From: a virus | Strand: one strand, 5' to 3' | Virus record (IMG/VR): IMGVR_UViG_3300015360_000051 | Location: 1 to 57,181 of that record | DNA length: 57,181 nucleotides | Shown: positions 32,328-56,747 of the stretch, piece after piece | Layout of the letters: every line of letters starts with the position of its first letter | Numbering within the stretch: position 1 is the first letter of the stretch | Notes under the pieces: generated by a model | What the model was told of the DNA's origin: nothing | The model's input: the letters and a program-made list of their open reading frames with translations, nothing else | Databases searched by the model: none | Translations under genes and position numbers: made by a program

Positions 32328-34400
32328 ATGTCTGAAGCAGAAAAAAAAACAAACAATAGAGTCATTTACGGCCTAGCGAAGGGCGAAGGTCGTTTGACTG
32401 CGACAGCCTTCGTCAGGACTCCTCTGTCGAAAAGTATCCTCAACATTTTAAATGGAGAGGAGGGCTCAGTCGAGCGACTGGCATTCGAGGTAGACCCCTC
32501 GTTACACAGTTCTCTAGCCGGAGTCTATCAGCCCAAGACTCGCGGTATCCCTGACGATATTTTGAAGCGTATTGCGGTTCAGGACTCCCTAGTCTCGAAC
32601 ATAGTGAGGGCTCGTCAGAACCATATCGGAGTATTCGGACACCCACGTCACGACCGGTTCAGCGTTGGTTTTACGCTTGAGCCTAACACTGGCATCATCG
32701 ACACAATGGATGATGGGCAAAAAAAGACCTTCAACGATGAAATCGACAAGGCAGTCCGATTAATCTACAATTGCGGGCACACTCATGGGATGGCAGACCA
32801 TGACAAATTAAATTTTTCAGAATGTTTAGTCCAGCTAGCGAGAAACGCCGTAGTTAATGGGCGTATCGCTATCGAAATAATTAAGACAGGGACTGACAAC
32901 GACAAAAAATTTCACCACTTTGCTCCAATCGACGCTGGCACAATCTACAAGGCCACTGAGAACAACGATGCGGCCCAAAGCTCACTTAGAGAAGGGGCGT
33001 ATCACACCCTCTGTCAGGTCACAGGGAAGAAGCTCATAAAAGAAAAATTTCTAGCTGATGAGTACAGGTGGATTCAGGTTATAGCAGGTCGACCCTATGC
33101 CGCATTCACCAGCGACGAGGTCAAAACATATAACTTCTACGCAGTACCGGATGTCGAGTGGAACGGATATCCCGTCACGCCTATCGATACGGTAATCACC
33201 TCGATTACGACTCATATAAATATCGTAAACCACAATCGACTTTATTTTCAGTCCGGGCGTGCAGCGAGAGGTATGCTGGTTATTACCTCAGACGACATTA
33301 ATCCGTCAGTCATCGGGAATATCAAACAGCAATTTAACGCCTCGATTAACTCCACCAATAACGCTTTCCGTATGCCTGTGTTTGGTTGTGGTACGGGCGA
33401 CCAGATTCAGTGGCAGCCAATTGACAGTGGTGGCGGCAAGGACATGGAGTTCCAATACCTGACCGACATGAACGCTAGAGAAATTCTAACTGCGTTCATG
33501 ATGTCGCCGGATGAGTTGCCGGGGTGGTCGTACCTCTCCAGAGGGACTTCCAATCAGGCACTAAGCGAGGGGAACCAGGAGTACAAACTGACTGCCGCTA
33601 GAGACGTTGGAATTCGCCCCCTCCTTCAGGGGTTCGAGGACTTTTTCAACACCAACATTATGGGCCTAATCAACTTAGAACTTTCCAAAAAGGTAAAGTT
33701 GAGGTTTGTGGGTCTTGACGCAGACAACGCAGAAAAAGAAGCCGTCCGACTCCAACAGGATATGTCGATTTGGGAGACCTACGACGGCCTGATGAAACGT
33801 GTTGAGCGAGACCCACTAGGCGCAGATTGGGGAGGTAGTCTCCCATTCAATCCGAATATTAAGGGGTATATCGACCAGTATTTTACGGTAGGTGAGATAT
33901 TGGAAAAATTTTGCGGCAGGCAAAACGCGTCCAAGGACCCTAATTTAGCATATAGACGCGACCAGTATTTTTTCCAGTGGATACAGATACAACAGGCTCA
34001 ACAGCAGCAGGCTATGGCTCAGCAACAACAGCAGGCTATGGCTCAGCAACAGGGTCAAGCTGAGCAACAGGGTGGTCAAGCTGAGCAACAGGGTGGTCAA
34101 GCTGAGCAACAGGGTGGTTCCAATAATCCCGAGCAGACCGAAAACCAAAAAAACCAAGCAGCCGAACAGTCGTCAGCTTCTGGTGGTGCAGAAGGGGCCG
34201 GGAACGCTCTAGCCCGCAGCATAGACCAGGCCCTCGATAGCTTGACAAAATCTGAAAAAGACCTCCCACCAGGTAAGCGCAGAATCCTTGCTCAGCAGAA
34301 AAAGACGGTAGAGCATTTCCTGCACGGGTGGGAAGAGGACTCTAAGCACGCCATCAAAGAAATTCTAGAAATCGCCGAACATCACGGCAAAAAAAGATAA
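32328..34400 (+). CDS. Portal protein
   Basis: 690 residues. Position after the large terminase, length, and sequences such as KTYNFYAVPDVEWNGYPV, the helical ITTHINIVNHNRLYFQSG region and MNAREILTAFMMSPDELPG fit a portal protein forming the dodecameric DNA gate at the head vertex. The C-terminus carries a Gln-rich low-complexity stretch (about residues 548-600) containing three perfect 21-bp DNA repeats. The stop overlaps the MuF-like gene's ATG. Confidence 0.75.
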   Translation: MSEAEKKTNNRVIYGLAKGEGRLTATAFVRTPLSKSILNILNGEEGSVERLAFEVDPSLHSSLAGVYQPKTRGIPDDILKRIAVQDSLVSNIVRARQNHIGVFGHPRHDRFSVGFTLEPNTGIIDTMDDGQKKTFNDEIDKAVRLIYNCGHTHGMADHDKLNFSECLVQLARNAVVNGRIAIEIIKTGTDNDKKFHHFAPIDAGTIYKATENNDAAQSSLREGAYHTLCQVTGKKLIKEKFLADEYRWIQVIAGRPYAAFTSDEVKTYNFYAVPDVEWNGYPVTPIDTVITSITTHINIVNHNRLYFQSGRAARGMLVITSDDINPSVIGNIKQQFNASINSTNNAFRMPVFGCGTGDQIQWQPIDSGGGKDMEFQYLTDMNAREILTAFMMSPDELPGWSYLSRGTSNQALSEGNQEYKLTAARDVGIRPLLQGFEDFFNTNIMGLINLELSKKVKLRFVGLDADNAEKEAVRLQQDMSIWETYDGLMKRVERDPLGADWGGSLPFNPNIKGYIDQYFTVGEILEKFCGRQNASKDPNLAYRRDQYFFQWIQIQQAQQQQAMAQQQQQAMAQQQGQAEQQGGQAEQQGGQAEQQGGSNNPEQTENQKNQAAEQSSASGGAEGAGNALARSIDQALDSLTKSEKDLPPGKRRILAQQKKTVEHFLHGWEEDSKHAIKEILEIAEHHGKKR
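34056..34118 (+). repeat. Three perfect 21-bp tandem repeats in the portal gene
   Basis: The unit caagctgagcaacagggtgg plus t occurs three times head to tail (34056-34076, 34077-34097, 34098-34118) and encodes QAEQQGG. Less regular CAG-rich repeats precede it (33990-34055). The unit is a multiple of three, so copy changes keep the frame. Confidence 0.9.
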
Positions 34401-35899: not shown

Positions 35900-36033
35900 T
35901 GTCAAGAAATTTTGTGGAAAAAGTGGATAATGTCGTAACAATATTGCTGGTAATCCTCATTGGCGTTCTGGCCGTCTCGACTCTAGCGCTAGTAGCATGT
36001 TTCGGTTATCACGTTTTGGTCGGCATCTCCTAA
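35896..36033 (+). CDS. Small single-pass membrane protein
   Basis: 45 residues from ATG 35896 (or 35899), with GGAGGAGG at 35885-35892 immediately upstream. Residues about 13-41 are a long hydrophobic stretch (VTILLVILIGVLAVSTLAL). It overlaps the preceding gene as ATGA. Its TAA overlaps an in-frame ATG at 36033 leading into the RNA ligase frame. Possibly a holin-like or accessory membrane peptide; no family is recognised. Confidence 0.55.
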   Translation: MMSRNFVEKVDNVVTILLVILIGVLAVSTLALVACFGYHVLVGIS

Positions 36034-36149
36034 TGTTATTGGTGGGGTTTTCGCTTTTCTGTTTTCTTGTGCTGGAGTTTTTTTTTGGAGTCAAAAAGTG
36101 GTGCCCGCGTGCGTTAGAGGCTGACCTAAAAGAGAGCAGGGCTTTAAAG
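36033..36149 (+). other. In-frame hydrophobic extension upstream of the RNA ligase start
   Basis: From ATG 36033 (TAATG overlap with the small membrane gene) the frame runs without a stop into the RNA ligase. It encodes a membrane-like segment (MLLVGFSLFCFLVLEFFFG) and a charged linker. If used, it would produce a membrane-tethered ligase. Confidence 0.35.
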
Positions 36150-37127
36150 ATGTCGTCGTTCAAGGTCAGAATCGTAAGGTTCCCAAAGTGCGGAAAACAC
36201 CCAAACGCCGACACTCTATGCATCGTCCATATCCTAGGGTACCAGGTCGTAATGAAGACCGGCCTCTTCAGAGAGGGCGACTGGTGCGTCTACGTCCCGG
36301 CCGACGCCCTAGTTCCCCTAGACCATCCGACTTTTCAGTTCCTGAAAACGCCTGATTCGTCCAAGACTCATTCAAGAATTCGTCCGCGAAAGTTGCGTGG
36401 TATTTTTTCGATTGGGTTTATTATCCCGTTGCCGCCCGGAACGGGAGTGTCGCCTCCCGAAGAGGAGGAGGTCACCAAGGCCCTAGGAATCACTCTCTGG
36501 GAGCCCACAGAGACATACGCTCTAGATGGCAGGCAGGCCAGTCCACCAGACCTTTTTTGCCCGATTTATCAAATCGAACCGCTGTGGAATTCTCCAGACG
36601 CCATTAAGGAAGGCGAAATGGTGTGGATTACCGAAAAAATCCACGGCTGTAATACCCGATTCTGTGTCGACCATTCCGGTAATTTTCATGTCGGGTCTCA
36701 TAATTGTTTTTGGTTAGACTCTGAGGCAAATGTATGGTGGAAGACTTCGAGAGCTTACCCTGAATTAGAGCAGGCTTGTCGGGAAAATCCGGGATGGACC
36801 ATCTACGGCGAAACGTACGGGGTCCAAGATTTAAAATACGGTCTGAAGAATGGGCAAACCGCCTTTGCCGCCTTTGCCGTCTTTGCCGGTTCTGCCTGGT
36901 TGAGTCCGGACGCATTGAGCGACTTTTGTCAGCGATACAAAATACCTACGGTCCCTCACCTATACACAGGACCGTTTAACCTTCAAAGCACCAAGGATTT
37001 AATCAAGCTCTCTGTCCTCTCCGACCATATGATGGAGGGGGTTGTCATTGTCTCAGAACGCGGAGCCCCTCTCAAGCTCCACGGAGAGGAGTACCTGCTG
37101 CGCAAGAACGGGACAGAAGCAAAGTAA
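36150..37127 (+). CDS. RNA ligase, DraRnl/Rnl5-like
   Basis: 325 residues. The N-terminal OB-type domain (MSSFKVRIVRF, KHPNADTL, GDWCVYVPADALVP) is followed by the nucleotidyltransferase core. Motif I EKIHGCN carries the AMP-accepting Lys (about residue 163), and WTIYGETYGVQ and EGVVI resemble motifs III and IV. The start at ATG 36150 is chosen from family-like sequence and AGGG eight bases upstream. The frame stays open back to ATG 36033, which would add a 39-residue hydrophobic extension. It probably seals broken RNA, for example host-cleaved tRNA. Confidence 0.75.
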   Translation: MSSFKVRIVRFPKCGKHPNADTLCIVHILGYQVVMKTGLFREGDWCVYVPADALVPLDHPTFQFLKTPDSSKTHSRIRPRKLRGIFSIGFIIPLPPGTGVSPPEEEEVTKALGITLWEPTETYALDGRQASPPDLFCPIYQIEPLWNSPDAIKEGEMVWITEKIHGCNTRFCVDHSGNFHVGSHNCFWLDSEANVWWKTSRAYPELEQACRENPGWTIYGETYGVQDLKYGLKNGQTAFAAFAVFAGSAWLSPDALSDFCQRYKIPTVPHLYTGPFNLQSTKDLIKLSVLSDHMMEGVVIVSERGAPLKLHGEEYLLRKNGTEAK

Positions 37128-37163: not shown

Positions 37164-40100
37164 GTGGCTGACCAGAAACCTAAAAAATCTACGGGAATGC
37201 TCATCGATGGCGTTTTCGCATCCGAAGCTATTGACAGCTCAGGCGAAATCGTATCAATAGAAGGCATGGACGTGACCACCATAGAAGAAGGGTGGGGTGT
37301 AGCAAATTATGAACACCTAGACGAAAAAGGTGGCTACGGCAGGGAAATTGTTGGCAAGATAGTAAGTGTCAAGAAAATTTTCACCGAAGGCGATTGCGAA
37401 AACGACCGTCAGAAGGAATACTTCAACAAAATCAAGAAGATTCCTTACCTATATGGCATAGTCAGACTCTATGACGGAGCAGGCCACGAAGGAGCCAAGG
37501 CATTAGCGGCTCAAATCCGAGACGCCGTCGCCAACGACGAGGAAATTATCGTACGATATTCGATTGAGGGGTCGACTACAAAAAAGACCGACAATCGAAT
37601 CGAAGAATCAATCGCAAAAAAAGTTGCGATGACTTTAAGACCATGTAACAAAACCGCTATTTCCGGTCTCATGGACGACCCGAACGCTCCGGACGGGTTC
37701 GACACTGTGCATAAGGCGGAGAGGCAGTTCATCGACCCGGAATTTTCCCCTCTAGGGGCCTCGACCGCGCTGGCATGCAACCCCTGTATGGACCGACAGG
37801 CCGAGGCTCAGATGCGCCTCCTAGGGTCATTCGCGAAGCTCAAGGCTCTCGCCAAGACTACTACCGCCGGGAACTATGACGTTGCCCCTTCTGCTCTTAC
37901 AGGCGGTGCAGCCCTACAGGTCGAAGACCTAGGGAGAACCGTAAGGAACACCGCCAAAGCCGTACTGAGAGACTACGGGTGGGGCACCTTCGATAGAGAT
38001 AAGTTCAAAAAATTTGCGAAATCAAAGTTACCGGAGATGTCCGATGACTTTATCAACCATTTCACTGACGTAGCATCAGATTTTGCCATCCGGAAGGCTA
38101 TCCAGAAGGGCGAGCTGTCGAGGACCTTTGAACCACTTCAGAAAAAACTCGCAACGGAACCTAAAGGCGGTGAGGCAGCCGCAGCACCGGTAGTCGGTAC
38201 TATTAGAGGCAAAAAAATTCGCCCCAATGTCGGGATGGTAGGTTCGTCCTTTGACTCGAAAAAGGGGGTGCTGCATACGGCTATAGGTAGCTTTAAGGCC
38301 TACCTTCCCCATAACGACGGCCCTGACTCCGCCGAAAACTACAATAACATCCTCAAGAGTCCAAAAGTGGAAGACGCTTTAGACCATGCTATGTCGAATT
38401 GGTCAAAGGTTCATCGCCTCAATAAGGCAGGCAAGTTACCACCCGAAGTATTGATGCACGCCGTCATGTTTTCCCAACTGTCTCCCAACAGGGCGGTACC
38501 GGTTCAGGAAATACAGTTTGCTCGAATGGTTGACGCGATGAAGGCATCTGGCCTAGACCCGCGCAAAAAGGGTTTCGAGGCAATCCTACCCAAAATGCGG
38601 GAACTCGACCATCCTACCAACGCCCCCGACACCGGGAGGGAGGCCATCGAATCGAACCTCGCCTACTATATCGGCGGCAAAAAAGGCGTCGAATATGGCA
38701 CTAGCGGCGAAAAGCTAGGACTTAGGTCCAAGACGAATAGATATCCGGGAGAGTTACATTCAGTCGAATCGTTAATCGGCACAAGCATCTCAAACATGTC
38801 TAAATATCATGGACTCCACGACGGTCTAGTAGATATCCTCCACAGACACCGTACTGACTCGGTAGGGGCGGTCGGAGAGCTGCTGGAAAATAAGAGACTA
38901 TCCAGAAACTGGTTGATGACGAATAAAAAAAATGGAGGTGACCCATCGGTCAACCCGCATTCGTCTGTTCCTGGGCTAGCCGCCAAAACAGGCCTGTATA
39001 CCTGGGGTATGATTGGTGGCGGCAACTCGGTAGTCCCGGATACGCACTTCATCCGGAACATGTTCGGACTTGACGTAACCAAGGATGCGAAAACGCTTTT
39101 CTATTTGAAAAGTAATATTTTGCAATCTGACGGAATCAAGCCACTGACTGAATACAACCATTGGTTCGCTAAGAATCATCCATCGGTCCAGTACACACTG
39201 AACCACCCCAAATGGGGCAGCACTTTTGAAAAGCCGGAAGACGCCATCTTTCCAGCATTCTGGCGCCATTGGTTAGCTATTGCTCCCCATGAGAAGTCAT
39301 TAGGGATGCGAAGCTACTCTAATCAACAGGGGACAAACCACGCTCCATTTTGGGAGGCTATTGCCCCGCACGTAGACCCGTTGTTGAAGGCCACCGGCCA
39401 AGGAGATTCCTCAATCCCCTTCAGGACCGCCATTCTACATCAACAGTACGTTAAGGACTACGGCGAGGTCCCCGGGATGTTCCTGTACTACCACCATATA
39501 GTACCCAAGCTACTAGAAGCGGCCAAGGTTAGAGAGAGAATTGGCGACGACCTAAAATTTCTCGCCAAGGCTAGTAAAATCGAGGCTGGGCTAGTAAACC
39601 TGCGTAAGGCTATCTCGGATGCTATTGAACCGTGGCAGCCTCCTCAAGTTCACAACGTCGAAATTAGCATCAAGGGCCGGAACCACCCTGCTGGGCGATA
39701 CCTCATCCACAACGGGAGACTCCACCACCTGGAGGATTATCACGGGATTCTGAGTTCCTTCTTGCCCGAAGGCGACCTCGACGTTGAGGCGGTTAGTCGG
39801 CTAAATGGCCTACAGTGGTCATCCAAACTTCATACTACTCCTCATTATCCTGTCATTGCACCACCTCCTCAGGCCGGTCAGGCTCAGGCTCAGGCTCCAT
39901 CGTACCGGGTGTCCTCTCTATCTGCTCAGGAGCCTAGACCTCCATCAGTATTCGAGTACCACCGCGTCGGAATGTCTCAGCCTCATATCGTGGAGGTAGG
40001 CGGAGGCGGAGCATCACTAGATGGTCGGAAAATCTCTGACCCCGAACTCCAGTTGATTTTGAGAAATGCCGAAAACGGTATTGCAAAAATAAAATACAAG

Positions 40101-40817
40101 CAGTCTCCCGCAGGGCTAAAAAAGGCCGACGACGAGACCCCCGTAATGTCTCCCGACGAGGTAATGCAGCATATCCAGGAGGCAGTCGCTCAAGGACATG
40201 TATCCGCAGATGTTGAGCGAGCCTATCGTCAGCATATTTATGGCGACGCGATGGTTTCAGGAGTCGGTAACAAGTACGCCTATACACAATTCCGGAACCA
40301 AAACAAGCCCGGCGTTTGGCTCTCAATGGACGCAAACAGCTTCAAGCACGTCAACGACAGTCACGGACACGAAGCGGGTGACCACGCAATCAAAGCGGTC
40401 GGAGGCGCGATTAAAAATGCAGCGGCAGTGGTCGGGACTGGTAAGGTGTTTCGCCCGGGTGGCGACGAATTCGCCGCCTATTTCCCCTCCCACGAGGAGG
40501 CATCTAGATTCATGAGGCACGCGACTACCCATTTAGACGCCGTACCGCCCGTCGCCGGGACGCACAAACTGTCCATGAGTTTTGGGGTTGGTGCCGATTT
40601 CCCAACTGCTGACAAAGCACTGTTGCTGGCCAAGGAGCAGAAAAAAGACCCTTTGTCGGGCAGGTTGATGTATCATCCTACCAATACTCCCCATCTAGCG
40701 CATAGCCTGATGCCAGGAAATGAAGGACCGGTGGGCCTACACAGTAAGGCGCCGCATCCAGCAACTATCCCGACCGGGGCAGGGGCAGGGGCAGGGGCAC
40801 CGCCCACAAATCCTTGA
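37164..40817 (+). CDS. 1217-residue head-cluster protein: protease-like N-terminus, capsid-arm-like segment, GGDEF C-terminus
   Basis: GTG start. Residues ~10-165 resemble XkdF/prohead-type proteases (VFASEAIDSSGEIV, ANYEH with His51, VRYSIEGST with Ser133). Residues 235-256 match the capsid protein N-terminus (residues 16-37) at 17 of 22 positions. A middle region (~380-790) contains VVPDTHFIRNMFG, faintly like HhH-GPD glycosylases. A Pro/Gln/Ala linker precedes a GGDEF domain (~1030-1180) with D1056, ND at 1064-1065 and R-P-GGDEF at 1097-1103. No inhibitory RxxD is seen just before GGDEF. Possibly a maturation protease carrying an enzymatic cargo delivered with the virion. Confidence 0.7.
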   Translation: MADQKPKKSTGMLIDGVFASEAIDSSGEIVSIEGMDVTTIEEGWGVANYEHLDEKGGYGREIVGKIVSVKKIFTEGDCENDRQKEYFNKIKKIPYLYGIVRLYDGAGHEGAKALAAQIRDAVANDEEIIVRYSIEGSTTKKTDNRIEESIAKKVAMTLRPCNKTAISGLMDDPNAPDGFDTVHKAERQFIDPEFSPLGASTALACNPCMDRQAEAQMRLLGSFAKLKALAKTTTAGNYDVAPSALTGGAALQVEDLGRTVRNTAKAVLRDYGWGTFDRDKFKKFAKSKLPEMSDDFINHFTDVASDFAIRKAIQKGELSRTFEPLQKKLATEPKGGEAAAAPVVGTIRGKKIRPNVGMVGSSFDSKKGVLHTAIGSFKAYLPHNDGPDSAENYNNILKSPKVEDALDHAMSNWSKVHRLNKAGKLPPEVLMHAVMFSQLSPNRAVPVQEIQFARMVDAMKASGLDPRKKGFEAILPKMRELDHPTNAPDTGREAIESNLAYYIGGKKGVEYGTSGEKLGLRSKTNRYPGELHSVESLIGTSISNMSKYHGLHDGLVDILHRHRTDSVGAVGELLENKRLSRNWLMTNKKNGGDPSVNPHSSVPGLAAKTGLYTWGMIGGGNSVVPDTHFIRNMFGLDVTKDAKTLFYLKSNILQSDGIKPLTEYNHWFAKNHPSVQYTLNHPKWGSTFEKPEDAIFPAFWRHWLAIAPHEKSLGMRSYSNQQGTNHAPFWEAIAPHVDPLLKATGQGDSSIPFRTAILHQQYVKDYGEVPGMFLYYHHIVPKLLEAAKVRERIGDDLKFLAKASKIEAGLVNLRKAISDAIEPWQPPQVHNVEISIKGRNHPAGRYLIHNGRLHHLEDYHGILSSFLPEGDLDVEAVSRLNGLQWSSKLHTTPHYPVIAPPPQAGQAQAQAPSYRVSSLSAQEPRPPSVFEYHRVGMSQPHIVEVGGGGASLDGRKISDPELQLILRNAENGIAKIKYKQSPAGLKKADDETPVMSPDEVMQHIQEAVAQGHVSADVERAYRQHIYGDAMVSGVGNKYAYTQFRNQNKPGVWLSMDANSFKHVNDSHGHEAGDHAIKAVGGAIKNAAAVVGTGKVFRPGGDEFAAYFPSHEEASRFMRHATTHLDAVPPVAGTHKLSMSFGVGADFPTADKALLLAKEQKKDPLSGRLMYHPTNTPHLAHSLMPGNEGPVGLHSKAPHPATIPTGAGAGAGAPPTNP

Positions 40818-41457: not shown

Positions 41458-41790
41458 TTATTTAGCCTGGCCGCCACGACAGGCCTTGCAAGTGCTGCTC
41501 CGGCCATAGAAGGAGAGATATAGGGGCAATAACTTGTTGCATTTTTTGCAATGCCGGAGGCCGGAATCGTCATTGCAAAGCTTGCAAATTTTATTGATGT
41601 CTAGTCTGCGGAATTGCTGACAGCAGGCGCATTGCGTTTTGTATTTTTCGGAAAAGTACAACGCGCTTCGACATTTTTTACATCTCGATGTTACTGCCCT
41701 GTTACGGTCATCTGATTTAAATTCGTGAAATGCTTCTCGCCCTAATTCGAGTTGGCATCCGGAGCATTTGTATTTTACGTCGTCAGTCAT
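41458..41790 (-). CDS. Multi-CxxC zinc-ribbon protein, reverse strand
   Basis: About 110 residues from ATG 41790 (MTDDVKYKCSGC); the frame stays open to TTG 41832. Five CxxC pairs (CSGC, CKKC, CACC, CKLC, CKKC and final CKAC) suggest two or more zinc ribbons. The first resembles the Cys-rich segments found beside endonuclease VII-like nucleases. No His-Asn-His core is present, so it may be DNA- or protein-binding only. Confidence 0.6.
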   Translation of the reverse strand: MTDDVKYKCSGCQLELGREAFHEFKSDDRNRAVTSRCKKCRSALYFSEKYKTQCACCQQFRRLDINKICKLCNDDSGLRHCKKCNKLLPLYLSFYGRSSTCKACRGGQAK

Positions 41791-41930
41791 CAGTTTAAAG
41801 ATTGACGCTCTTTTGTATCGACAGAAAATCAATCTAATAGGAAGTAAATGGGCGCTTTTTTAGTGCTCTTCGCAGCACCTTCAAAAAAAGGACGCTGCCT
41901 CAAAATCAGATAAATGGAGAATTAGAAAAA

Positions 41931-42435: not shown

Positions 42436-43371
42436 ATGAAAAAATTGTCAAAATCGCAAATCTCAAAGATTTTGGAGGAGGTCACTAATGACGTGGCCGA
42501 ACTTCTGAAATCAGAGGCTGAAGAGGCTGTTGCGCTCAGTAAAGCAGACCCCGGGAAAGAGACGGCTGCTGAAGCTACCCCCTCCGGTAGCTCGACAGAG
42601 GAGTCTTCGGCTCCTCCGCCTGAAATGTCCGCTAGCCCTCCGGCTGGCGAACCTGATGGTGGTGGTCTAGAAGGCGGTCCAGAAGGTAGTCCAGAAGGCA
42701 GTCCAGAAGGTAGTCCAGAAGGTAGTCCAGAAGGCGGTCCAGAAGGCGGTCCAGAAGGCGGTCCAGAAGGTGCAGACGGCGGTCAGGAAATGTCGCCCGA
42801 AGCTCTCCAGGGCGAATATTCGCAACTGCCCATCGAAGAACTCAAGATGCATTTTTTGGCGGCGAAAGCCGCTCTCGAAGCTGCATTGCAGGGTGGTGGT
42901 GGTGGTGCAGGGGCTCCAGAAGCTTCGGCTCCTCCGGGTGCTCCTCCGGGACCTCCGGGTGCTCCTCCGGGTGCTCCTCCGGGTGCTCCTCCGGTTCCAG
43001 GCACGGACAAGCTGGAACTCAAAGAGGTTAAAAACTCTTTGGCGGACCTCAAGAAAAACGTATCAGCTAAGGACGCAGAAATCCTGGAGTTGCGGAACAA
43101 ACTCGACCAGTTAGTTACTGGATTTGAGGGAATTCTGACTCGTCAACAGGTTTTGCGCAAGTCGGCAAGAGATTTGTCCTCATTCGCACCTGCGAATGGT
43201 GATGATACTGTCGTCGACATCTCTAATCTGTCCAAAAAAGAAATCGTAGCGAAGCTTAGTGAGGTCACTGCTTCGACCAACAAACTAACTAAATCAGACC
43301 GTGACCTCATCAACCGCTTCGTGGTATCCGATTCAGTGCCCGCTGAGTCCGTAGCCAAGTTCTGCAAGTAA
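42436..43371 (+). CDS. Low-complexity protein before the capsid gene (possible scaffold)
   Basis: 311 residues from ATG 42436 with AAAGG upstream; a longer start would overlap the previous gene. The N-terminus is helical and acidic. Residues ~76-115 repeat PEG-S/G units (12-bp DNA repeats), residues ~165-195 are Pro/Gly/Ala repeats (APPGAPPG), and ~195-240 form a coiled coil (LKKNVSAKDAEILELRNKLDQL). Position directly before the capsid gene and the charged coiled-coil plan fit a scaffold or core protein, but this is inference. Confidence 0.5.
   Translation: MKKLSKSQISKILEEVTNDVAELLKSEAEEAVALSKADPGKETAAEATPSGSSTEESSAPPPEMSASPPAGEPDGGGLEGGPEGSPEGSPEGSPEGSPEGGPEGGPEGGPEGADGGQEMSPEALQGEYSQLPIEELKMHFLAAKAALEAALQGGGGGAGAPEASAPPGAPPGPPGAPPGAPPGAPPVPGTDKLELKEVKNSLADLKKNVSAKDAEILELRNKLDQLVTGFEGILTRQQVLRKSARDLSSFAPANGDDTVVDISNLSKKEIVAKLSEVTASTNKLTKSDRDLINRFVVSDSVPAESVAKFCK
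42668..42771 (+). repeat. 12-bp tandem repeats encoding Pro-Glu-Gly
   Basis: Repeated GG[CT][GA]GTCCAGAA units code for EGGPEGSPEGSP-type sequence. They are in frame and expected to be unstable in copy number. A second proline-rich repeat (GGTGCTCCTCC) lies at 42937-42992. Confidence 0.85.
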
Positions 43372-43389: not shown

Positions 43390-44787
43390 ATGGAAACAGT
43401 AGATAAAATCAACTCCCTTATCAAGGCGATGGAGGCTGGCAATTACGATGCCGCTCCTTCCACTCTGACCCAGGGTGGAGCCCTCCAAATCGAGGACCTG
43501 AGCCCCGTCATGAACAACGTCACGTTCGAGGAAGCCAGCCTGAAGCTCCAGAAGAAAATGACCGTTAAATCGTGCAAGTCAACCCTCGCACAGTTTGACC
43601 GTCAGCTTTCGTACGGTAACTTCGGGGGGTCGGCCCAGCTCGAAGGTAACGTTGGTCAAGAAGACACGAGTGACTTCGTTCGTTCGACCGTCCCGATGGC
43701 ATTCTACAGCTCGACTCGTCGGGTTACGATTGCGTCGACGATGGTGGCTACGGTCGATGGCATTTCGAGCGACGACCGCGCCGCCGCTGACGCTGCGAAG
43801 AAATTGGCTGGAGACATCGAATTCGACCTCTTTCGCGGGTTGGATGATTTCTCGAACGCTGGTGTATTCGATGGCAATCCTCTCGTTGTTCCAAACCTCC
43901 CGAATATTCACGGTGTGGGCCTGCAAATCCGTCAGTCGGATTTTCAAGTCAATTCGCGTGACCTCATGTTTGCGGAGTATGGTTCGGATGACTCGGTCAT
44001 CATCTCCGGTGGTGGTGTCGCACTGACTCAGGACAAGGTTGAAGACTCGGCCGTTCGTTCGGCCCTGAATTTCGGCACTGCTGAATCGCTTCTGATTGAC
44101 CCGATTTCGTTGTCTGCGTACAACAAAATCTCGTTTGGTAAGGAACGTATCATCCTGGCTGGTTCGCCTCAAGAGGCCACTGGCGCCGAGCTACGGAAAC
44201 AGTGGGTTTCGGTTGGCACTGTCAACGTAGAGTCCAGCAATTTCCTTCGTGGTAAAAGCAAGCCCGCCCGCACTCGACCGAACGGCCCTGCCGCTCCTTC
44301 GATTACTGGCGCTGCTAGCGGTGGTGGTGCGTTGGGTGCCGGTACGTACGTATACTACGTATCGGGCTTCAATGAGGTTGGTGAATCGGCTGGTTCGACT
44401 TCTATCGCGGTCGTCGTCTCTGCTAACGAAAAGGTCACACTCACAATCACGCATAGCGGCGCAGGCACAACTACGAGAGGCTTCAACGTCTATCGTTCGG
44501 GTGCTGGTGGCACGGCTGTGTCAGCTAAGTTCATTGGTCGCGGTACGACCACTGCTAACTCGGCAACCACCGATTTCGTGGACCTTGGCAACAAGGTTCC
44601 CGGATTCGTTACTGGATACCTAATCCAGAAGGACACGATGGAAATGAAGGAGTTGGCCCCGTACAGCCGTCTAAAGCTGGGCGTTGCCGACCTTTCGACT
44701 CCTGAGGCTCACTTCCGCTTTACTTGTCTTGCGATGCTTCAGCCCCGCAAGAACGTAATTTTGGATAACCTGAAGGGGACGTTCTAA
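43390..44787 (+). CDS. Major capsid protein with Ig-like insertion
   Basis: 465 residues. The N-terminal arm (residues 16-37) and the following NNVTFEEASLKLQKKM lead into a HK97-like order (GNFGGSAQLEGNVGQEDT, DRAAADAAKKLAGDIEFDLFRG). Residues about 295-405 form an Ig/FN3-like insert (GTYVYYVSGFNEVGES ... GFNVYRSGAGG), as on decorated capsids. The C-terminus returns to capsid-like sequence (PEAHFRFTCLAMLQPRKNVILDNLKG). Codon choice here (many TCG, GGT) looks more uniform than in neighbours. A strong terminator follows, fitting a highly expressed late gene. Confidence 0.75.
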   Translation: METVDKINSLIKAMEAGNYDAAPSTLTQGGALQIEDLSPVMNNVTFEEASLKLQKKMTVKSCKSTLAQFDRQLSYGNFGGSAQLEGNVGQEDTSDFVRSTVPMAFYSSTRRVTIASTMVATVDGISSDDRAAADAAKKLAGDIEFDLFRGLDDFSNAGVFDGNPLVVPNLPNIHGVGLQIRQSDFQVNSRDLMFAEYGSDDSVIISGGGVALTQDKVEDSAVRSALNFGTAESLLIDPISLSAYNKISFGKERIILAGSPQEATGAELRKQWVSVGTVNVESSNFLRGKSKPARTRPNGPAAPSITGAASGGGALGAGTYVYYVSGFNEVGESAGSTSIAVVVSANEKVTLTITHSGAGTTTRGFNVYRSGAGGTAVSAKFIGRGTTTANSATTDFVDLGNKVPGFVTGYLIQKDTMEMKELAPYSRLKLGVADLSTPEAHFRFTCLAMLQPRKNVILDNLKGTF

Positions 44788-50543: not shown

Positions 50544-53500
50544 ATGGCAACACCTGAGGGCGAAGCTACACATTCTGCTGAGGTTGCCCTAATCCAGGTA
50601 ACCAACGCACAGGGGCATCTGCTCCTGGGCAAACGTAACGATACCGGTAAATGGACGTTGCCTGGTGGTCACCTAGAGCACGGAGAAAGTCCAGAGAGAG
50701 GGGCTATTAGGGAGCTGTTCGAGGAGACCGGGTTGAAGCCTGAGTCTCTAACCTATGCCAGGAAGTTCAGCCCGCACGATGGGTTAACTATTCACTGTTT
50801 CACAGCTCTCTGTCTCGGAGACCCTCATGGGGACAATGACCCAGACAACGAATGCGACAAATGGGAATGGGTGGACGTTAGTGACGGCATTCCTGAGGAT
50901 ATGTGGGAGAACCTAGCGGGGCCCAAAAATGGAAATGTGGTTAAGCAGGTGTTCGACCAGAGTTTGACCAAAATGGACATTAAAGAGGTACACGATTACA
51001 ATTCGTCAATAGACGACCACGTTCCTCCGCCAACTTCCACTAATTTTCCCAGGCCTGTAAAGGATAATCCCCATCAGCATCAAATTCCTGCCAAACCTAT
51101 GGCTAAGGTCGTCCACAAGACTTCGCTAGCACAACTGAATTTATACGACCGGGAATTTCAGGGATATATCCCCGCTCCCAGCCTTGCTATCGTCCATCAG
51201 GACAAGGATTTTGACTCGTTCGGTGACGTGACCCTCATCGCTCATCCTAGGATGGTCGACCCTAGGGTAACGAACACCCATGTCTATTCGGGGGACTCCT
51301 ACTCTCCACGGAGCGGCAAGCCGATATGGCGCTCTGGACTCGAAGCTAATAATAGCTTTGCGTCAGAGGTTCACAACGACCCGACTGCTAGCGATACAGA
51401 CCGAGGAACTAGTAGATATTCAAAAGAATCGTTCGCGAGAGAGTTTGGGGAGTATTTTAATTCTCACCATTCGGTCTCCGTCTTCCACCAAGGACTATTA
51501 GCTGTCCCTGGTTCCTCCAGCGGCGATGTACCAAGAATGGTGGTCGATAGGTTCTATGCCGAACACCCCCTCGTGGGTTTTGGAGAGAGAGGACTAAATC
51601 ACCAATACTTATTTGATAACTGGCTCTCTCAGAAAATGAAGGCTAGCGGATGGCAGCGAAAATTTTCATCCTCGTCGAGTGACGGAGCCGTTGAAGACTC
51701 TGACCCCGAGACAATCCTACGCAGAATGAATAGACGCCCCACGTTCGGCGGAGAAAGTCACCTAACCCACGCCTCCGCCCGCAAGAACCCAACAATGCAA
51801 GGCATCTTGTTGGAGACAAAGAAGTTTCGCTCCTTGAACGAGATAAAGGCACATACCGGTCAATTAATTGGGCATTCCGGTATTGAGGATAATGAAGAAA
51901 AAATAAACGAACAAACACAAACTCTGAGAGATTCTCTAACTGCTGACGCCTCCAAAAGGGGCAGCACTGTCACTGACGAAGACATTGACCATGTCGTCAG
52001 AGGGGTCCACTCAGGCAAATATCGTACCGCCAAAAAAGCAGTTCAGGCGATTCTGGGAGGGGATGTAGAATCAAAATTCCCAGAAGTCAGCGGCCGAATT
52101 GAAGAGATTATCAAGCTCTCTACTAAGAGAGGTCAAGAATATTTTGAGGCCAAGCCCAGGCGCTTGGTTCATTTGTCCGAGTTTCACACCGCCGTTGTCC
52201 CTCCGACCATATTTCCGGAACAGCTCGCGACCCTCAAAAGGTACGGGCTCAATGTCGTCAAACAGGACGCAAACCCCAGCCAGGTAACCAATATAGCAAG
52301 AGACCACAACTTGCTGCTGTCAGAGCATAGCATAGACGAACTCCAGTTCGCCGAACTTCAAAAATCTGATGACATGGATATTGAGTGGCTAGCGAAAGCA
52401 ATGACCACGGAAGACGAAGTGTCGACCTTGCTCCAGCACCACGACCCGATGGAACGCAGGCTCGCGCTGCGGCTCAATACGGCCACCCCTTCCCACATCC
52501 GCCAAGGGGCCTTCGACGCCGATGAAGAAGTCTGGAAGGAGGCACTCGCCCATCCAGACTCCGCAATCGCTAAGAGGGCTGTGCTTGCCTGTACCTCGAA
52601 CGACAAAGGGGAGGACCTGTGGCCCCAACAGCAGCACTTACTAGCAGATGACAACCTGCCAGCCGAGGCCCTGGATACCCTATACTCGACCATCCTACAT
52701 GATAACGACATCGGAGATAGTTCGAGGAAGGCGCGACTAAATGAGATAGCGGGTCACCCAAACTTCGATTTCCCTACAGAGAACCCCGACCAGTCCCTCG
52801 CAAAGCATTGGGGGCACGACCTGATTGAAGGTGCGCATAATATTCACCCTCCTACGGATTCTCTCGCCCCTAATCAGGCTCATAACATTGACCGTCATGC
52901 AGCCTACAAAAACGATTTCGATTCCCACCAACATCTAGTACCGGTCAAAAATGACAAGTTAGCACAGCTAGGCGAAAACAAAAAAGTCATTCACAAGACG
53001 AAGGTTTCGAAATATATGGTCAAGCCGTGGACTGCTGGAGAGAGCATCTCCCAACAGGTATTCCACGCCGCCGGAATGGGACACATCCATCAAAAAAGTT
53101 TCACCACCGAATACGTGGACAAAAAAACGGGTAAGGGTACCCAGGCCACGGTCATCAAGATAGAGCCTTTTCACTCAACAATCGCCAGCCTGAATGGGTG
53201 GGGCGGAACTGGACGAGTTAAACACCCCCTCCCAGACGAGCCGAGGCACGACCCGGATGATTTCATTAAAGGAAACATCTTAGACGCCGCTCTAGGACAG
53301 AATGACCGACATTTAAACAATATCATGATAGATGATATCTCGGGGAAGCCTCTATATATAGATAGCGACGCGTGCGGGAAGTCCATCTATGGGAATTGGG
53401 GGGAATTTAAGGACTCAGTAGAGTTTTCTAATTTTCTCAGCCACAGTAGAAGCCATCTCGACGGACACCTAGCAAAACAATTACTGGGAGACAGAAGCGA

Positions 53501-56500
53501 GGAAGCGTTTCGCCGAAAGGTCCACAGACTGGTACAAACGTGGTGGCCTACAGTGTCAGAGCCAATTAAAGCGAAGTTGGGCGAACTAGGCGACCGAGGC
53601 CGCAGTTCTGTCCTAGAGAATATCCACAACAACGTAAGCCAACTTGACAGACTTGTCCGTGGAAAAAGCGAAGACGGCTCAGAATCTGTTAACGACGAAA
53701 ACGGCGCCCGAAAGGAATGGCGCAACGTCGAAGGTCTCATTCATCGTGATGGTGACTTGCCTGCTATTATTCGCCAAAATGGCGAGAATGCCTATTACAA
53801 AAACGGTAAACGCCACCGTGACGGTGACCTTCCTGCTATCTTGGGCGGCCCTGACGGAGGGGTAACGTATTACAAAAACGGCTTCCGCCATCGTGACGGC
53901 GACCAGCCAGCCCACAAAGACAAAGATGCGGAAGCGCATTACCGAGATGGCAAGCTCCATCGTGACGGAGGCCTGCCTGCCGTTGTGCACGCCAACGGGC
54001 GCAAGGAGTGGTACGAAGGCGGGCTTCATCACCGTGACGGAGACCTGCCCGCTATCGAATACGAAGACGGAGGTAAGGAATACCTATATCGTGGAGTGAG
54101 AGGCCGCAACGGCGAGGACAAGCCATCCATTATCCGTAATGGAACTGAAACCTACTATATGGATGACCTTATTCATCGCATGAATGACTTGCCCTCCGTA
54201 ATAGGCCCTGGGCGGGAGGAATATTTTCGACTTGGTCGTCCCCACCGTGACGGCGGCCTGCCTGCCGTCGTCGTGGACAAACCAGGAGGGGTCAAAGAAC
54301 ATCATTATTTTCTGAATGGAGTCCCGTACCGCCCGCTCGGACTACCCACCTATGATGACGGAGCAGGATATCAGGAGTGGCGGAGTGCGGACGGGCTTCT
54401 CCACCGTCTCGATGGCCCCGCTGTAATCAAGGGCGCCGTTGGAGAACCTTACGAGGAGCATTATTACAAGGATGGCAAGCTCCATCGTGAGGATGGCCCC
54501 GCTATATTCAGACGCGACGGGGGTCACGAATTCTACGAGAAAGGCGTCCAGGTATTTCAAACTGCGGATGGATACAGAACTCTCAGTAGTGGGCTAGGAG
54601 GCATCAAGCTGAAAGAGCTACGAAACAAATCCGGGGACCTCCACAGCAAAAACGACCTTCCGGCCTATATTAAGATAAGGGAGGGCGAGAGAGGGAAGGA
54701 AAGAGTTATTAGAAAAGAGTGGCACAAAGAAGGGAAGGTCCATCGTGATGGAGACCTGCCCGCCATCGAGTTGTCAGACGGAACCAAGTTTTGGTACAAA
54801 GACGGCCTCCCCCATCGTGACGGTGGATTGCCTGCCATCGAGAGACTGGACGGCAGTAAAGAATGGCACGTAAACGGTAAGCGCCATCGTGATAACGACT
54901 TGCCCGCCATCGAACAGGCAGACGGGAGCAAGGAATGGTTTGTAAATGGTAAGCGCCATCGTGACGGTGATTTGCCTGCCGTTGAATGGCAGGACGGGCA
55001 TAAGGCGTGGTATGAAAACGGTCAGCCCCACCGTGACGGCGGCCTGCCTGCGGTCGAGTGGGCAGACGGGCATAAGGAATGGAAGGTAAACGGTTATCTC
55101 CATCGTGACGGAGACCTGCCTGCCATCGAACGGCCAGACGGGGCCAGGCAGTGGTACGTACGCGGGAAACGCCATCGTGACAACGACTTGCCCGCAATCG
55201 AATGGCCAGACGGAACCAGGTCGTGGTGGGTGGACGGCCAGCATTACCGTGACGGAGGACTACCCACTATTGAACGCGCAGGAATACCAGGAGTTAAAAA
55301 AGCCCTCGAAAGCGGCTGGGCGGATAACCTCCACAGCAAACCAGACCAGATGCCCACCGTTTTTAGGGCTAATGATGCTGTAAAAAAATACAAACAATTT
55401 GAAGGAACCCACAAGACGTTTGAGACTCACGAACCCGTACAGCCGTCTAAAGCTCTTTTCCAGAAGCATGTCCAAGACTCTCCGCATCTAATACCAACCC
55501 CTCCCCCTACATCCAATATGGGAGGGGTTGAGAATAAACACGTTCACGAATTCGAGGACGATTCAGGGGCATACCATAGATTCCTAATTAAAGGGTACCA
55601 CAGCAACTACGCCATGCACAGCGGGTTTGGGGAGCTAATGTCACAGGACGCCTACCACGCCGGAAACATTGGACACCTGCATCAAAAATCCTTCGCCACC
55701 ACTGACGACCAAGGCAATCCGGCATTGGTAATTCATATGGACCATAGCAGGAATGTAGGGGTGGATGATTGGCCCGAACATGCGGAAGACTATCATAAAA
55801 TCGCAATGATGGACTTTTTGTTGCAAAATGGTGACAGACATGGTGATAATATAATGTCTCCCCCTCTGGCGATAGACAATGCTGCGTCGAGTTACATGGA
55901 CTTTTACGGGGGGAACGTACCTCCTACCCAAGAAGAACTGTGGAAGGATTCAGACGCCCTAGAAAGGATTCCAAACAACCTAGGGACCAAACACTCTCCT
56001 GGAATTAAGGAGTGGTGGAATCAAAATAAGGTAGCCATTAAGGATTCAGTTCATAGGAATTTCCGAAAAGTGCTCCCCGACGACGATGGAGACGTAAATC
56101 ATGCGCACAGTCGGTTAGATGCCCGATTTGATGACCTGGACAGTTCGGTTAACTTTAAGTTCGGTCAACACACCCGCGTTTCCGAAGGAGTCACAAACAG
56201 CCTAAACGAGCACGGCCTCGCGCACAGTTTTGACGACCAGCCCGCCCTGATAATGAGGGGCGGCGGTCTCAAAATCTGGATGAAAAATGGGGTCAAACAT
56301 CGTGACGGTGGCTTGCCTGCATATGTTGAGGACGACGGATACGAAATCCACTACAAAGACGGCAAAGTCCATCGTGACGGAGGCCTGCCCGCCATCGAAT
56401 ACGCAGACGGTGGTAAGGAGTGGCACGTAAACGGAAAAATCCACCGCGATAACGGACTGCCCGCCGTCGAACGGGCGGACGGGACCAAGGAGTGGTGGGA

Positions 56501-56747
56501 AAATGGTAAGCGCCACCGTTACGACGGCCTGCCTGCCGTTGTGCGAGCGGACGGACACAAGGAATGGCACTGGAACGGGCACCTGCATCGTAACAACGAC
56601 TTGCCCGCAATCGAATGGACAAGCGGAGGTCGGTCGTATTACAAGGACGGGAAACTCCATCGAGACGGTGGCCAGCCCGCCAAGGAACAACCAAACGGTA
56701 ACCATGAGTGGTGGGTGGACGGAAAAAACTATCCCAAACCACAGTGA
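50544..56747 (+). CDS. 2067-residue multidomain protein: Nudix, polyvalent-protein-like, HEAT-like, two kinase-like modules, MORN-2-like repeats
   Basis: Order: Nudix hydrolase (box residues 42-64, G42, E48, R56-E57, E60-E61, G63). Residues ~210-262 resemble domains of phage polyvalent proteins (PAPSLAIV, FGDVTLIA, GDSYSPR). A segment with EAKPRRLVHLSEF and TAVVPP lies near 533. HEAT-like repeats span ~611-750. Kinase-like module 1 (~816-950) has NDRHLNN at 920-926 and YIDSD. Repeat block 1 spans ~1058-1345, including older HREDGPA units, and block 2 spans ~1393-1577. Kinase-like module 2 (~1613-1800) has NGDRHGDN at 1762-1769 and LAID. Repeat block 3 spans ~1910-2066. It may be injected with DNA; activity is unproven. 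Confidence 0.7.
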   Translation: MATPEGEATHSAEVALIQVTNAQGHLLLGKRNDTGKWTLPGGHLEHGESPERGAIRELFEETGLKPESLTYARKFSPHDGLTIHCFTALCLGDPHGDNDPDNECDKWEWVDVSDGIPEDMWENLAGPKNGNVVKQVFDQSLTKMDIKEVHDYNSSIDDHVPPPTSTNFPRPVKDNPHQHQIPAKPMAKVVHKTSLAQLNLYDREFQGYIPAPSLAIVHQDKDFDSFGDVTLIAHPRMVDPRVTNTHVYSGDSYSPRSGKPIWRSGLEANNSFASEVHNDPTASDTDRGTSRYSKESFAREFGEYFNSHHSVSVFHQGLLAVPGSSSGDVPRMVVDRFYAEHPLVGFGERGLNHQYLFDNWLSQKMKASGWQRKFSSSSSDGAVEDSDPETILRRMNRRPTFGGESHLTHASARKNPTMQGILLETKKFRSLNEIKAHTGQLIGHSGIEDNEEKINEQTQTLRDSLTADASKRGSTVTDEDIDHVVRGVHSGKYRTAKKAVQAILGGDVESKFPEVSGRIEEIIKLSTKRGQEYFEAKPRRLVHLSEFHTAVVPPTIFPEQLATLKRYGLNVVKQDANPSQVTNIARDHNLLLSEHSIDELQFAELQKSDDMDIEWLAKAMTTEDEVSTLLQHHDPMERRLALRLNTATPSHIRQGAFDADEEVWKEALAHPDSAIAKRAVLACTSNDKGEDLWPQQQHLLADDNLPAEALDTLYSTILHDNDIGDSSRKARLNEIAGHPNFDFPTENPDQSLAKHWGHDLIEGAHNIHPPTDSLAPNQAHNIDRHAAYKNDFDSHQHLVPVKNDKLAQLGENKKVIHKTKVSKYMVKPWTAGESISQQVFHAAGMGHIHQKSFTTEYVDKKTGKGTQATVIKIEPFHSTIASLNGWGGTGRVKHPLPDEPRHDPDDFIKGNILDAALGQNDRHLNNIMIDDISGKPLYIDSDACGKSIYGNWGEFKDSVEFSNFLSHSRSHLDGHLAKQLLGDRSEEAFRRKVHRLVQTWWPTVSEPIKAKLGELGDRGRSSVLENIHNNVSQLDRLVRGKSEDGSESVNDENGARKEWRNVEGLIHRDGDLPAIIRQNGENAYYKNGKRHRDGDLPAILGGPDGGVTYYKNGFRHRDGDQPAHKDKDAEAHYRDGKLHRDGGLPAVVHANGRKEWYEGGLHHRDGDLPAIEYEDGGKEYLYRGVRGRNGEDKPSIIRNGTETYYMDDLIHRMNDLPSVIGPGREEYFRLGRPHRDGGLPAVVVDKPGGVKEHHYFLNGVPYRPLGLPTYDDGAGYQEWRSADGLLHRLDGPAVIKGAVGEPYEEHYYKDGKLHREDGPAIFRRDGGHEFYEKGVQVFQTADGYRTLSSGLGGIKLKELRNKSGDLHSKNDLPAYIKIREGERGKERVIRKEWHKEGKVHRDGDLPAIELSDGTKFWYKDGLPHRDGGLPAIERLDGSKEWHVNGKRHRDNDLPAIEQADGSKEWFVNGKRHRDGDLPAVEWQDGHKAWYENGQPHRDGGLPAVEWADGHKEWKVNGYLHRDGDLPAIERPDGARQWYVRGKRHRDNDLPAIEWPDGTRSWWVDGQHYRDGGLPTIERAGIPGVKKALESGWADNLHSKPDQMPTVFRANDAVKKYKQFEGTHKTFETHEPVQPSKALFQKHVQDSPHLIPTPPPTSNMGGVENKHVHEFEDDSGAYHRFLIKGYHSNYAMHSGFGELMSQDAYHAGNIGHLHQKSFATTDDQGNPALVIHMDHSRNVGVDDWPEHAEDYHKIAMMDFLLQNGDRHGDNIMSPPLAIDNAASSYMDFYGGNVPPTQEELWKDSDALERIPNNLGTKHSPGIKEWWNQNKVAIKDSVHRNFRKVLPDDDGDVNHAHSRLDARFDDLDSSVNFKFGQHTRVSEGVTNSLNEHGLAHSFDDQPALIMRGGGLKIWMKNGVKHRDGGLPAYVEDDGYEIHYKDGKVHRDGGLPAIEYADGGKEWHVNGKIHRDNGLPAVERADGTKEWWENGKRHRYDGLPAVVRADGHKEWHWNGHLHRNNDLPAIEWTSGGRSYYKDGKLHRDGGQPAKEQPNGNHEWWVDGKNYPKPQ

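What the first reader, a model, noticed from the sequence alone, without database searches (positions are those of the whole stretch)
40200..40700. GGDEF domain at the C-terminus of a head-cluster protein
The 1217-residue protein ends with a GGDEF domain that keeps D1056, N1064/D1065 and RPGGDEF (1097-1103), residues expected for diguanylate cyclase activity. It lacks an RxxD inhibitory site. A phage protein, possibly packaged in the virion, that makes cyclic di-GMP (or another cyclic dinucleotide) on entry could reset host behaviour or interfere with cyclic-nucleotide defence signalling. The fusion to a protease-like N-terminus is striking.
Basis: partly seen in the sequence, partly recalled or inferred. 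Interest (0 to 1): 0.75.

Follow-up and report, generated by a model that had tools for sequence, protein, structure and literature searches.

The report
Self-cleaving phage polyprotein carrying GGDEF enzyme
A bacterial virus appears to string its capsid-maturation protease, a DNA-glycosylase-like domain and a cyclic-di-GMP synthase into one protein that carries the capsid's own cutting sites between its parts, which would load these enzymes into virus particles for delivery into the next host cell.

Summary
Confirmed and extended. The 1217-aa ORF (37164-40817) ends in a genuine GGDEF domain (Pfam E 2.3e-14; predicted fold matches diguanylate cyclases, Z up to 18) with catalytic and guanine-binding residues intact. 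It is the last module of what looks like a head-maturation polyprotein: T4-gp21-like prohead protease (aa 5-172), 8-oxoguanine-glycosylase-like domain (381-726), unknown domain (830-970), GGDEF. GGDEF is fused to the protease in 13 distinct proteins and encoded just downstream in 14, and accompanies the glycosylase-like domain in 24 of 24 testable cases. New: a cleavage rule, LxK|[AST]. It marks the propeptide boundary of 30 of 30 capsid proteins (supported by a solved mature homolog), is enriched 8-fold in scaffolds, is not enriched in terminases, and in fused proteins concentrates in the linkers between domains (34 sites, 3.9 expected). Right after the first site the protease carries a copy of the capsid protein's N-terminal arm. 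Best reading: the protease cuts this chain inside the prohead and leaves an intact GGDEF enzyme in the virion. Cleavage, packaging, injection and cyclase activity are inferred, not shown. Phage GGDEF domains and injected multidomain proteins are known; a protease-borne, self-processing cargo chain was not found in my searches.

The parts
37164..40817 (+). whole chain, 1217 aa: protease, capsid-arm copy, helical segment, glycosylase-like domain, LINK domain, GGDEF
   Evidence: domain limits
37176..37679 (+). prohead protease domain, aa 5-172; H51 and S133 conserved, D172 candidate third residue
   Evidence: T4 gp21 5jbl Z 9.6, herpesvirus proteases Z about 7-8; H51 57/58, S133 57/58, D172 47/58 with 7 gaps; relatives hit phrog_1028 head maturation protease
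37848..37955 (+). aa 229-264: predicted cleavage site LAK231|T followed by a copy of the capsid protein N-terminal arm
   Evidence: profile of 12 capsid proteins, E 6e-11; K231 invariant in 18 aligned proteases
37932..38108 (+). aa 257-315, conserved helical segment after the arm copy
38304..39341 (+). aa 381-726, 8-oxoguanine-glycosylase-like domain; K608 and D626
   Evidence: 3fhg Z 14.8, rmsd 3.0, 203 of 207 residues; K608 27/28, D626 28/28; no Pfam glycosylase match
39567..39611 (+). predicted cleavage sites LAK802|A and LRK815|A in the glycosylase-LINK linker
39651..40073 (+). aa 830-970, LINK domain of unknown function, a separate gene in Mx1 (WNM70323)
40116..40127 (+). predicted cleavage site LKK987|A just before GGDEF
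   Evidence: site in this linker in 9 of 13 fused proteins; low-confidence linker
40188..40727 (+). aa 1009-1188, GGDEF diguanylate-cyclase-like domain (D1056, N1064, D1073, RPGGDEF 1097-1103, K1157)
42436..43371 (+). scaffold-like protein (called ORF starts at 42337; in-frame ATG at about 42436), 5 LxK[AST] sites
   Evidence: 5 vs 0.56 expected, 0 of 1000 shuffles; matched to relatives by position and profile
43390..44787 (+). major capsid protein; predicted propeptide boundary LIK12|A followed by the arm that the protease copies
   Evidence: phrog_752 E 1.9e-43; solved SPO1-type homologs; one site only

Best explanation
The ORF encodes a head-maturation polyprotein. Step 1 (inferred): the protease part, with its capsid-arm copy, brings the whole chain into the prohead. 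Step 2 (strong sequence evidence, no biochemistry): during maturation the protease cuts LxK|[AST] sites in the capsid protein, in the scaffold and in its own chain, separating protease, glycosylase-like domain, LINK and GGDEF. Step 3 (inferred): the scaffold, with many sites, is cut into small pieces, while the GGDEF piece (about aa 988-1217), with no strict site inside, stays whole in the capsid. Step 4 (inferred): it enters the next cell with the DNA and makes cyclic di-GMP from GTP early in infection, while the glycosylase-like domain acts on DNA. Fusion to the protease would fix the dose, since each protease brings one of each enzyme.
For: GGDEF identity, fold and catalytic residues. Protease fold, its place next to scaffold and capsid genes, and conserved H51 and S133. 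Capsid-arm copy in the protease, found with a profile made from capsid proteins only; all hits with E below 1 are capsid proteins or proteases. Mature capsid homolog as deposited starts right after the Lys that aligns with K12 of the capsid protein. LxK[AST] counts: capsid 30 of 30 with one N-terminal site; scaffolds 141 vs 17.0 expected; terminases 18 vs 22.2. Fused proteins: boundary linkers 11 vs 2.5, 14 vs 0.9 and 9 vs 0.8, each reached by 0 of 1000 shuffles; protease domain 0, LINK 0, GGDEF with tail 2 vs 2.6. Related motifs are not enriched to a like degree. Mx1 has LINK and GGDEF as separate genes, so the predicted cuts fall where another phage has gene ends. SPO1 protease has the same arm copy and the SPO1 scaffold the same sites.
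Against: No cleavage, virion content or activity was measured. The sites are not universal: 10 of 13, 10 of 12 and 9 of 13 fused proteins have one in the three linkers, and L007 has only the first. The glycosylase-like region also holds more sites than expected (12 vs 5.7), which would cut inside it if exposed. Three of six stand-alone GGDEF genes (L003 Mx1, L008, L051) lack a strict site near the start. Some distant proteases have cargo on the protease side of the arm copy. The start of a deposited chain is the depositors' statement, not N-terminal sequencing that I saw. GGDEF enzymes need to dimerise (recalled); nothing here shows how.
Confidence: 0.6

Rival explanations
1. The cleavage is real but GGDEF works in the producing cell, late in infection or during head assembly (as cyclase or GTP sensor), and is discarded or inert in the virion.
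For: The gene lies among late head genes; T4 protease is largely cleared from the mature head (PMC5694885, passages).
Against: Strict sites inside the GGDEF region are rare (2 in 13 proteins), so a piece of about 230 aa would have to leave whole; in three of six phages where GGDEF is its own gene it still has a site 20-23 residues from its start, like a trimmed targeting peptide.
Confidence: 0.2
2. The GGDEF domain is not a cyclase but a nucleotide or c-di-GMP binder, or makes another nucleotide.
For: No activity data; D1065 and F1103 vary among relatives and D1073 is N in 2 of 27.
Against: D1056, N1064, R1097, G1100 and D1101 are in 27 of 27, E1102 in 26 and K1157 in 26; such conservation would not be expected of a degenerate domain.
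Confidence: 0.13
3. LxK[AST] is a compositional or structural feature of helices and linkers in these proteins and not a cleavage motif; the chain acts uncut.
For: No cleavage was measured in this phage group; portals are enriched too (100 vs 30.5); LxK before K, R or H is 2.3-fold enriched in scaffolds.
Against: LxR, LxE, LxD, LxQ, LKx and the reversed order are at most 1.4-fold enriched while LxK[AST] is 8.4 and 8.8-fold; the one capsid site coincides with the start of a deposited mature chain; portal sites sit mostly in the first and last tenths.
Confidence: 0.07

Closest known systems
Myxococcus phage Mx1 WNM70322-WNM70324 (OR576727)
   Same: Same protease with glycosylase-like domain, LINK and GGDEF in the same order beside capsid genes
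   Different: Three genes; a PI3/4-kinase-like end on the protease (sub-threshold, E 0.019) where the window has LINK and GGDEF
SPO1-type prohead proteases (SPO1 gp3.2)
   Same: Capsid-arm copy after an LxK|S site; scaffold rich in LxK[AST]
   Different: 256 aa, short tail and no cargo domains
T4 gp21 and SPN3US gp245 prohead proteases
   Same: Fold (gp21); gp245 removes its own C-terminal propeptide (PMC7411985 and PMC5694885, passages)
   Different: Reported SPN3US motif is AXE, not LxK; no enzyme cargo on the protease reported in the passages seen
Polyvalent proteins (Iyer 2017, PMC5512222)
   Same: Unrelated enzyme domains on one chain, thought to be packaged and injected; a prophage case with GGDEF (passages)
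   Different: There the GGDEF case sits with ATPase, methyltransferase, metallopeptidase and ART domains; here the carrier is the capsid protease and the chain has capsid-type cleavage sites
T4 Alt and internal proteins
   Same: Virion cargo trimmed by the prohead protease and injected (PMC7411985, passage)
   Different: Separate proteins with their own short targeting peptides
Other phage GGDEF proteins (Bacillus phage G Gp350, phage SP-15, Bordetella phage CN1)
   Same: GGDEF fold in phage proteins
   Different: Link to a protease not seen and not tested

Membership tests
GGDEF diguanylate cyclases (PF00990) | Profile score over curated cut-off | tested here: met
   53.9 vs 23.8 bits; TIGR00254 41.9 vs 37.4
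GGDEF diguanylate cyclases (PF00990) | GG[DE]EF loop, metal Asp, guanine-contacting Asn and Asp | tested here: met
   D1056, N1064, D1073, G1099-F1103; residue roles recalled
GGDEF diguanylate cyclases (PF00990) | Fold | tested here: met
   SiaD Z 18.4, rmsd 2.2, 155 aligned; PleD Z 17.2
GGDEF diguanylate cyclases (PF00990) | Makes c-di-GMP as a dimer | not testable with these tools
   needs a cyclase assay
Tailed-phage prohead proteases (T4 gp21 / SPO1 type) | Fold and catalytic His and Ser | tested here: met
   5jbl Z 9.6, rmsd 2.9, 121 aligned; H51, S133 57 of 58
Tailed-phage prohead proteases (T4 gp21 / SPO1 type) | Encoded with portal, scaffold and capsid genes | tested here: met
Tailed-phage prohead proteases (T4 gp21 / SPO1 type) | Cleaves capsid and scaffold proteins and itself | not testable with these tools
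   only motif statistics here
HhH-GPD / OGG2 DNA glycosylases | Fold | tested here: met
   3fhg Z 14.8, 203 of 207 residues, rmsd 3.0; Foldseek alone not significant
HhH-GPD / OGG2 DNA glycosylases | Catalytic Lys and Asp after the hairpin | tested here: met
   K608 27/28, D626 28/28; roles assigned by recalled motif, not by a residue-level superposition
HhH-GPD / OGG2 DNA glycosylases | Sequence profile match | tested here: not met
   no Pfam glycosylase match at E up to 1; so called glycosylase-like only
Polyvalent proteins | Two or more unrelated domains on one mobile-element protein | tested here: met
Polyvalent proteins | Packaged and transferred to the host with DNA | not testable with these tools
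   needs virion proteomics and an infection assay

The most novel reading that the evidence does not exclude
A lineage of SPO1-related tailed phages has turned the self-cleaved tail of its prohead protease into a cargo polyprotein, a tailed-phage counterpart of the Gag-Pol principle: protease, DNA-repair-like enzyme and cyclic-di-GMP synthase are loaded in fixed numbers, cut free at capsid-type sites and injected, so that a second messenger is made in the host before any phage gene is read.
Probability: 0.45. Interest if true: 0.88.

Novelty: new variant of a known kind. Interest (0 to 1): 0.76.

Why it matters
If true, it shows how phages can load enzymes into capsids by riding on the maturation protease, gives a sequence rule (LxK|[AST]) with which virion cargo of SPO1-type phages can be predicted, and makes directly testable whether a phage sets host cyclic-di-GMP at the moment of entry. 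The relative Mx1 and its host Myxococcus xanthus are cultured, so the tests are practical.

Tried and rejected
Artefact of assembly or gene calling: rejected; the fusion is open in 13 distinct proteins.

Prophage or cellular gene: a scan of bacterial and archaeal genomes with the protease/glycosylase alignment gave 15 pattern matches, none confirmed; the method needs exact short patterns, so this is weak. Defence-system reading: no PADLOC match for this protein.

Search with the single protein found nothing in viral contigs; alignments were needed. I first took the conserved A[LM]xxE at the end of the arm copy for a T4-like cleavage site; the solved capsid chains moved the site to the Lys at its start. 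Foldseek on aa 1-840 gave no match under E 0.001; VIA-align gave the domains. The LINK fold was not resolved: the lists are filled by GGDEF. Host of the window phage not determined. Literature searched: GGDEF with prohead protease, phage-encoded diguanylate cyclase, internal proteins and targeting, GGDEF with virion terms, maturation protease with polyprotein and cargo, phage 8-oxoguanine glycosylase (none): no report of this architecture in the listings, abstracts and passages that I saw; the library lacks most subscription papers.

Full report
Observation. ORF 37164-40817 encodes 1217 aa. Its C-terminus is a GGDEF domain by profile (PF00990 E 2.3e-14; TIGR00254 above cut-off) and by predicted fold (model of aa 826-1217 from 10 sequences, GGDEF region mostly above pLDDT 90; Foldseek top matches are diguanylate cyclases; VIA-align SiaD Z 18.4, WspR 18.1, PleD 17.2). 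Among 27 distinct GGDEF domains in or beside these proteases, D1056, N1064, R1097, G1100 and D1101 are invariant, D1073 is D in 25, E1102 is E in 26, K1157 is K in 26 (one gap), F1103 is F in 21. No RxxD inhibitory site was seen in the 20 of 27 domains that the pattern could test. Residue roles are recalled from PleD.

What else the protein holds. A model of aa 1-840 (18-row alignment, mean pLDDT 75) matches T4 prohead protease gp21 over aa 5-159 (Z 9.6) and herpesvirus capsid proteases, and 8-oxoguanine DNA glycosylases over about aa 381-726 (3fhg Z 14.8, rmsd 3.0, 203 of 207 residues). Foldseek alone was not significant and the tool warns that helical domains can score high, so the name is kept as glycosylase-like; in its favour K608 is kept in 27 of 28 and D626 in 28 of 28, where such enzymes have their catalytic Lys and Asp (recalled). 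Pfam gives no glycosylase match. Aa 830-970 (LINK) is of unknown function.

Relatives. The only relative over most of the length in 50,697 phage records is Myxococcus phage Mx1, where the modules are three genes annotated putative prohead protease, hypothetical protein and nucleotide cyclase. The Mx1 genome announcement (PMC10720576, part 1 of 2 of the text) does not discuss them. Scans of viral contigs gave more. After merging identical or contained sequences there are 57 distinct protease ORFs: GGDEF is fused in 13; it is a downstream gene in 14 (13 listed, plus L010, whose GGDEF gene overlaps the protease gene by a few bases and which the script binned as without); it is absent within 4 kb in 13; 9 are cut by a contig end and 8 lie too near one. 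All 24 testable proteins with the glycosylase-like domain have GGDEF; of 16 without it, 3 do. Of 14 records searched whole with PF00990, 8 match, each once; no EAL domain was found in 9 records.

The capsid-arm copy. Residues 229-264 repeat the N-terminal arm of the phage's own major capsid protein. A profile from 12 capsid proteins alone, run over all ORFs of at least 80 aa in the loci then held, has only capsid proteins and proteases among its hits with E below 1; the window protease has E 6e-11. By reading, the copy is present in nearly all complete proteases and degenerate in L006 and L023. In several distant relatives it lies near the C-terminus, after an extra domain.

The cleavage rule. 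The capsid protein matches solved SPO1-type capsid proteins. Chain 9row_B (439 aa) and full-length 5lii_P (463 aa) show the same sequence in the printed alignments with an offset of 24, so the chain as deposited starts after Lys24, which aligns with K12 of the window capsid protein; the protease copy has K231 there, invariant in 18 aligned proteases. The rule read from this, LxK|[AST], was then counted. All 30 distinct capsid proteins have exactly one N-terminal site, with 3 other sites in all; 33 scaffolds have 141 (17.0 expected), 45 portals 100 (30.5), 30 terminases 18 (22.2); 55 of the portal sites lie in the first and 26 in the last tenth of the chain. An earlier, smaller count agrees. 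Of 50 window ORFs only the scaffold (5 vs 0.56) and this protein (6 vs 1.43) pass the script's flag.

Sites between domains. In the 13 fused proteins (12 for parts that need the helical segment or the glycosylase-like domain): protease domain 0 sites (2.1 expected), linker after it 11 (2.5), helical segment 3 (1.2), helical segment to glycosylase 2 (1.1), glycosylase-like domain 12 (5.7; reached by 10 of 1000 shuffles), glycosylase-LINK linker 14 (0.9), LINK 0 (1.0), LINK-GGDEF linker 9 (0.8), GGDEF with tail 2 (2.6). Three linkers (after the protease, before LINK, before GGDEF) are reached by 0 of 1000 shuffles; 10 of 13, 10 of 12 and 9 of 13 proteins have a site there. In the alignment of seven fused proteins the sites near window K231, K815 and K987 coincide in 6, 5 and 5. 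In the window protein 5 of 6 sites lie in low-confidence stretches, against 28 of all 91 lysines (Fisher p 0.0099). Controls: LxK[AST] is 8.4-fold enriched in scaffolds and 8.8-fold in the linkers; LxR, LxE, LxD, LxQ, LKx and the reversed order at most 1.4-fold; LxA 1.6-fold and LxK before D, E, N or Q 1.9-fold in linkers; LxK before K, R or H 2.3-fold in scaffolds; [IVMF]xK[AST] 2.9 and 2.7-fold. Where LINK and GGDEF share a separate gene, a site lies between them in L038, L052, L057, L096 and L099; L045 has one at the edge of GGDEF, L010 and L043 none. Where GGDEF is its own gene, L013, L050 and L105 have a site 20-23 residues from the start; L003, L008 and L051 do not by the strict rule.

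Origin. SPO1 gp3.2 (256 aa) has the capsid-arm copy after LDK|S and a short tail, and its scaffold gp3.3 has 5 LxK[AST] (0.45 expected); Aerococcus phage AVP shows the arm copy with weaker scaffold enrichment, and in Bacteroides phage DAC16 the capsid site is present but the scaffold is unclear. The simplest history (inference) is that the protease tail of an SPO1-type ancestor gained cargo domains, with gene fusion or fission between the window-like and Mx1-like states.

Precedents. SPN3US protease gp245 removes its C-terminal propeptide autocatalytically, and that tail is proposed to target it into the core (PMC7411985, passages; PMC5694885, passages). T4 Alt and internal proteins are trimmed virion cargo (passages). 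Polyvalent proteins include a GGDEF case, with the idea that it could interfere with host nucleotide signalling (PMC5512222, passages). Panoptes shows cyclic dinucleotides used in phage defence (PMC12657218, passages). Phage GGDEF proteins are in structure libraries.

Verdict. Cleavage, packaging, injection, activity and effect remain to be shown.

Noticed in passing
window 50544-56747 (+): 2067-aa protein with NUDIX, PBECR5 nuclease and PI3/PI4-kinase-like matches: a typical polyvalent protein in the same phage; only 2 LxK[AST] sites, not enriched.
   Followed up: partly
L028, L027, L029, L026, L018: Distant or shorter relatives of the protease carry other domains: GNAT acetyltransferase (L028), HEAT repeats (L026), PI3/4-kinase-like end just under cut-off (L018); L029 has a tape-measure family match. 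The protease may be a general cargo carrier.
   Followed up: partly
window 41458-41832 (-): Cys-rich 124-aa minus-strand ORF after the fusion gene; Mx1 has a similar Cys-rich minus-strand ORF at the same place (L003 13821-14312).
   Followed up: no
window 35997-37127 (+): RNA ligase with PHA02142 OB-fold domain between the MuF-like gene and the fusion gene; the called start may be too early.
   Followed up: no
L025 10001-10462; L012 17766-18200: Extra short protease-like ORFs: a 154-aa one in the contig that also holds L009, and a 145-aa partial match after the capsid gene of L012.
   Followed up: no
window 32328-34400 and portals of relatives: Portal proteins carry LxK[AST] sites mainly near both ends (55 and 26 of 100 in first and last tenth), as if portal tails were trimmed too.
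   Followed up: partly
L113 6490-16401: 3304-aa phage ORF with an internal GGDEF match at aa 825-985.
   Followed up: no
L057, L043, L055, L034, L089, L096, L105: GGDEF loop variants in relatives of the domain (for example GGDCF, GGDEG, GGDEI, GGDEM, GGDEL, GGDEN).
   Followed up: no
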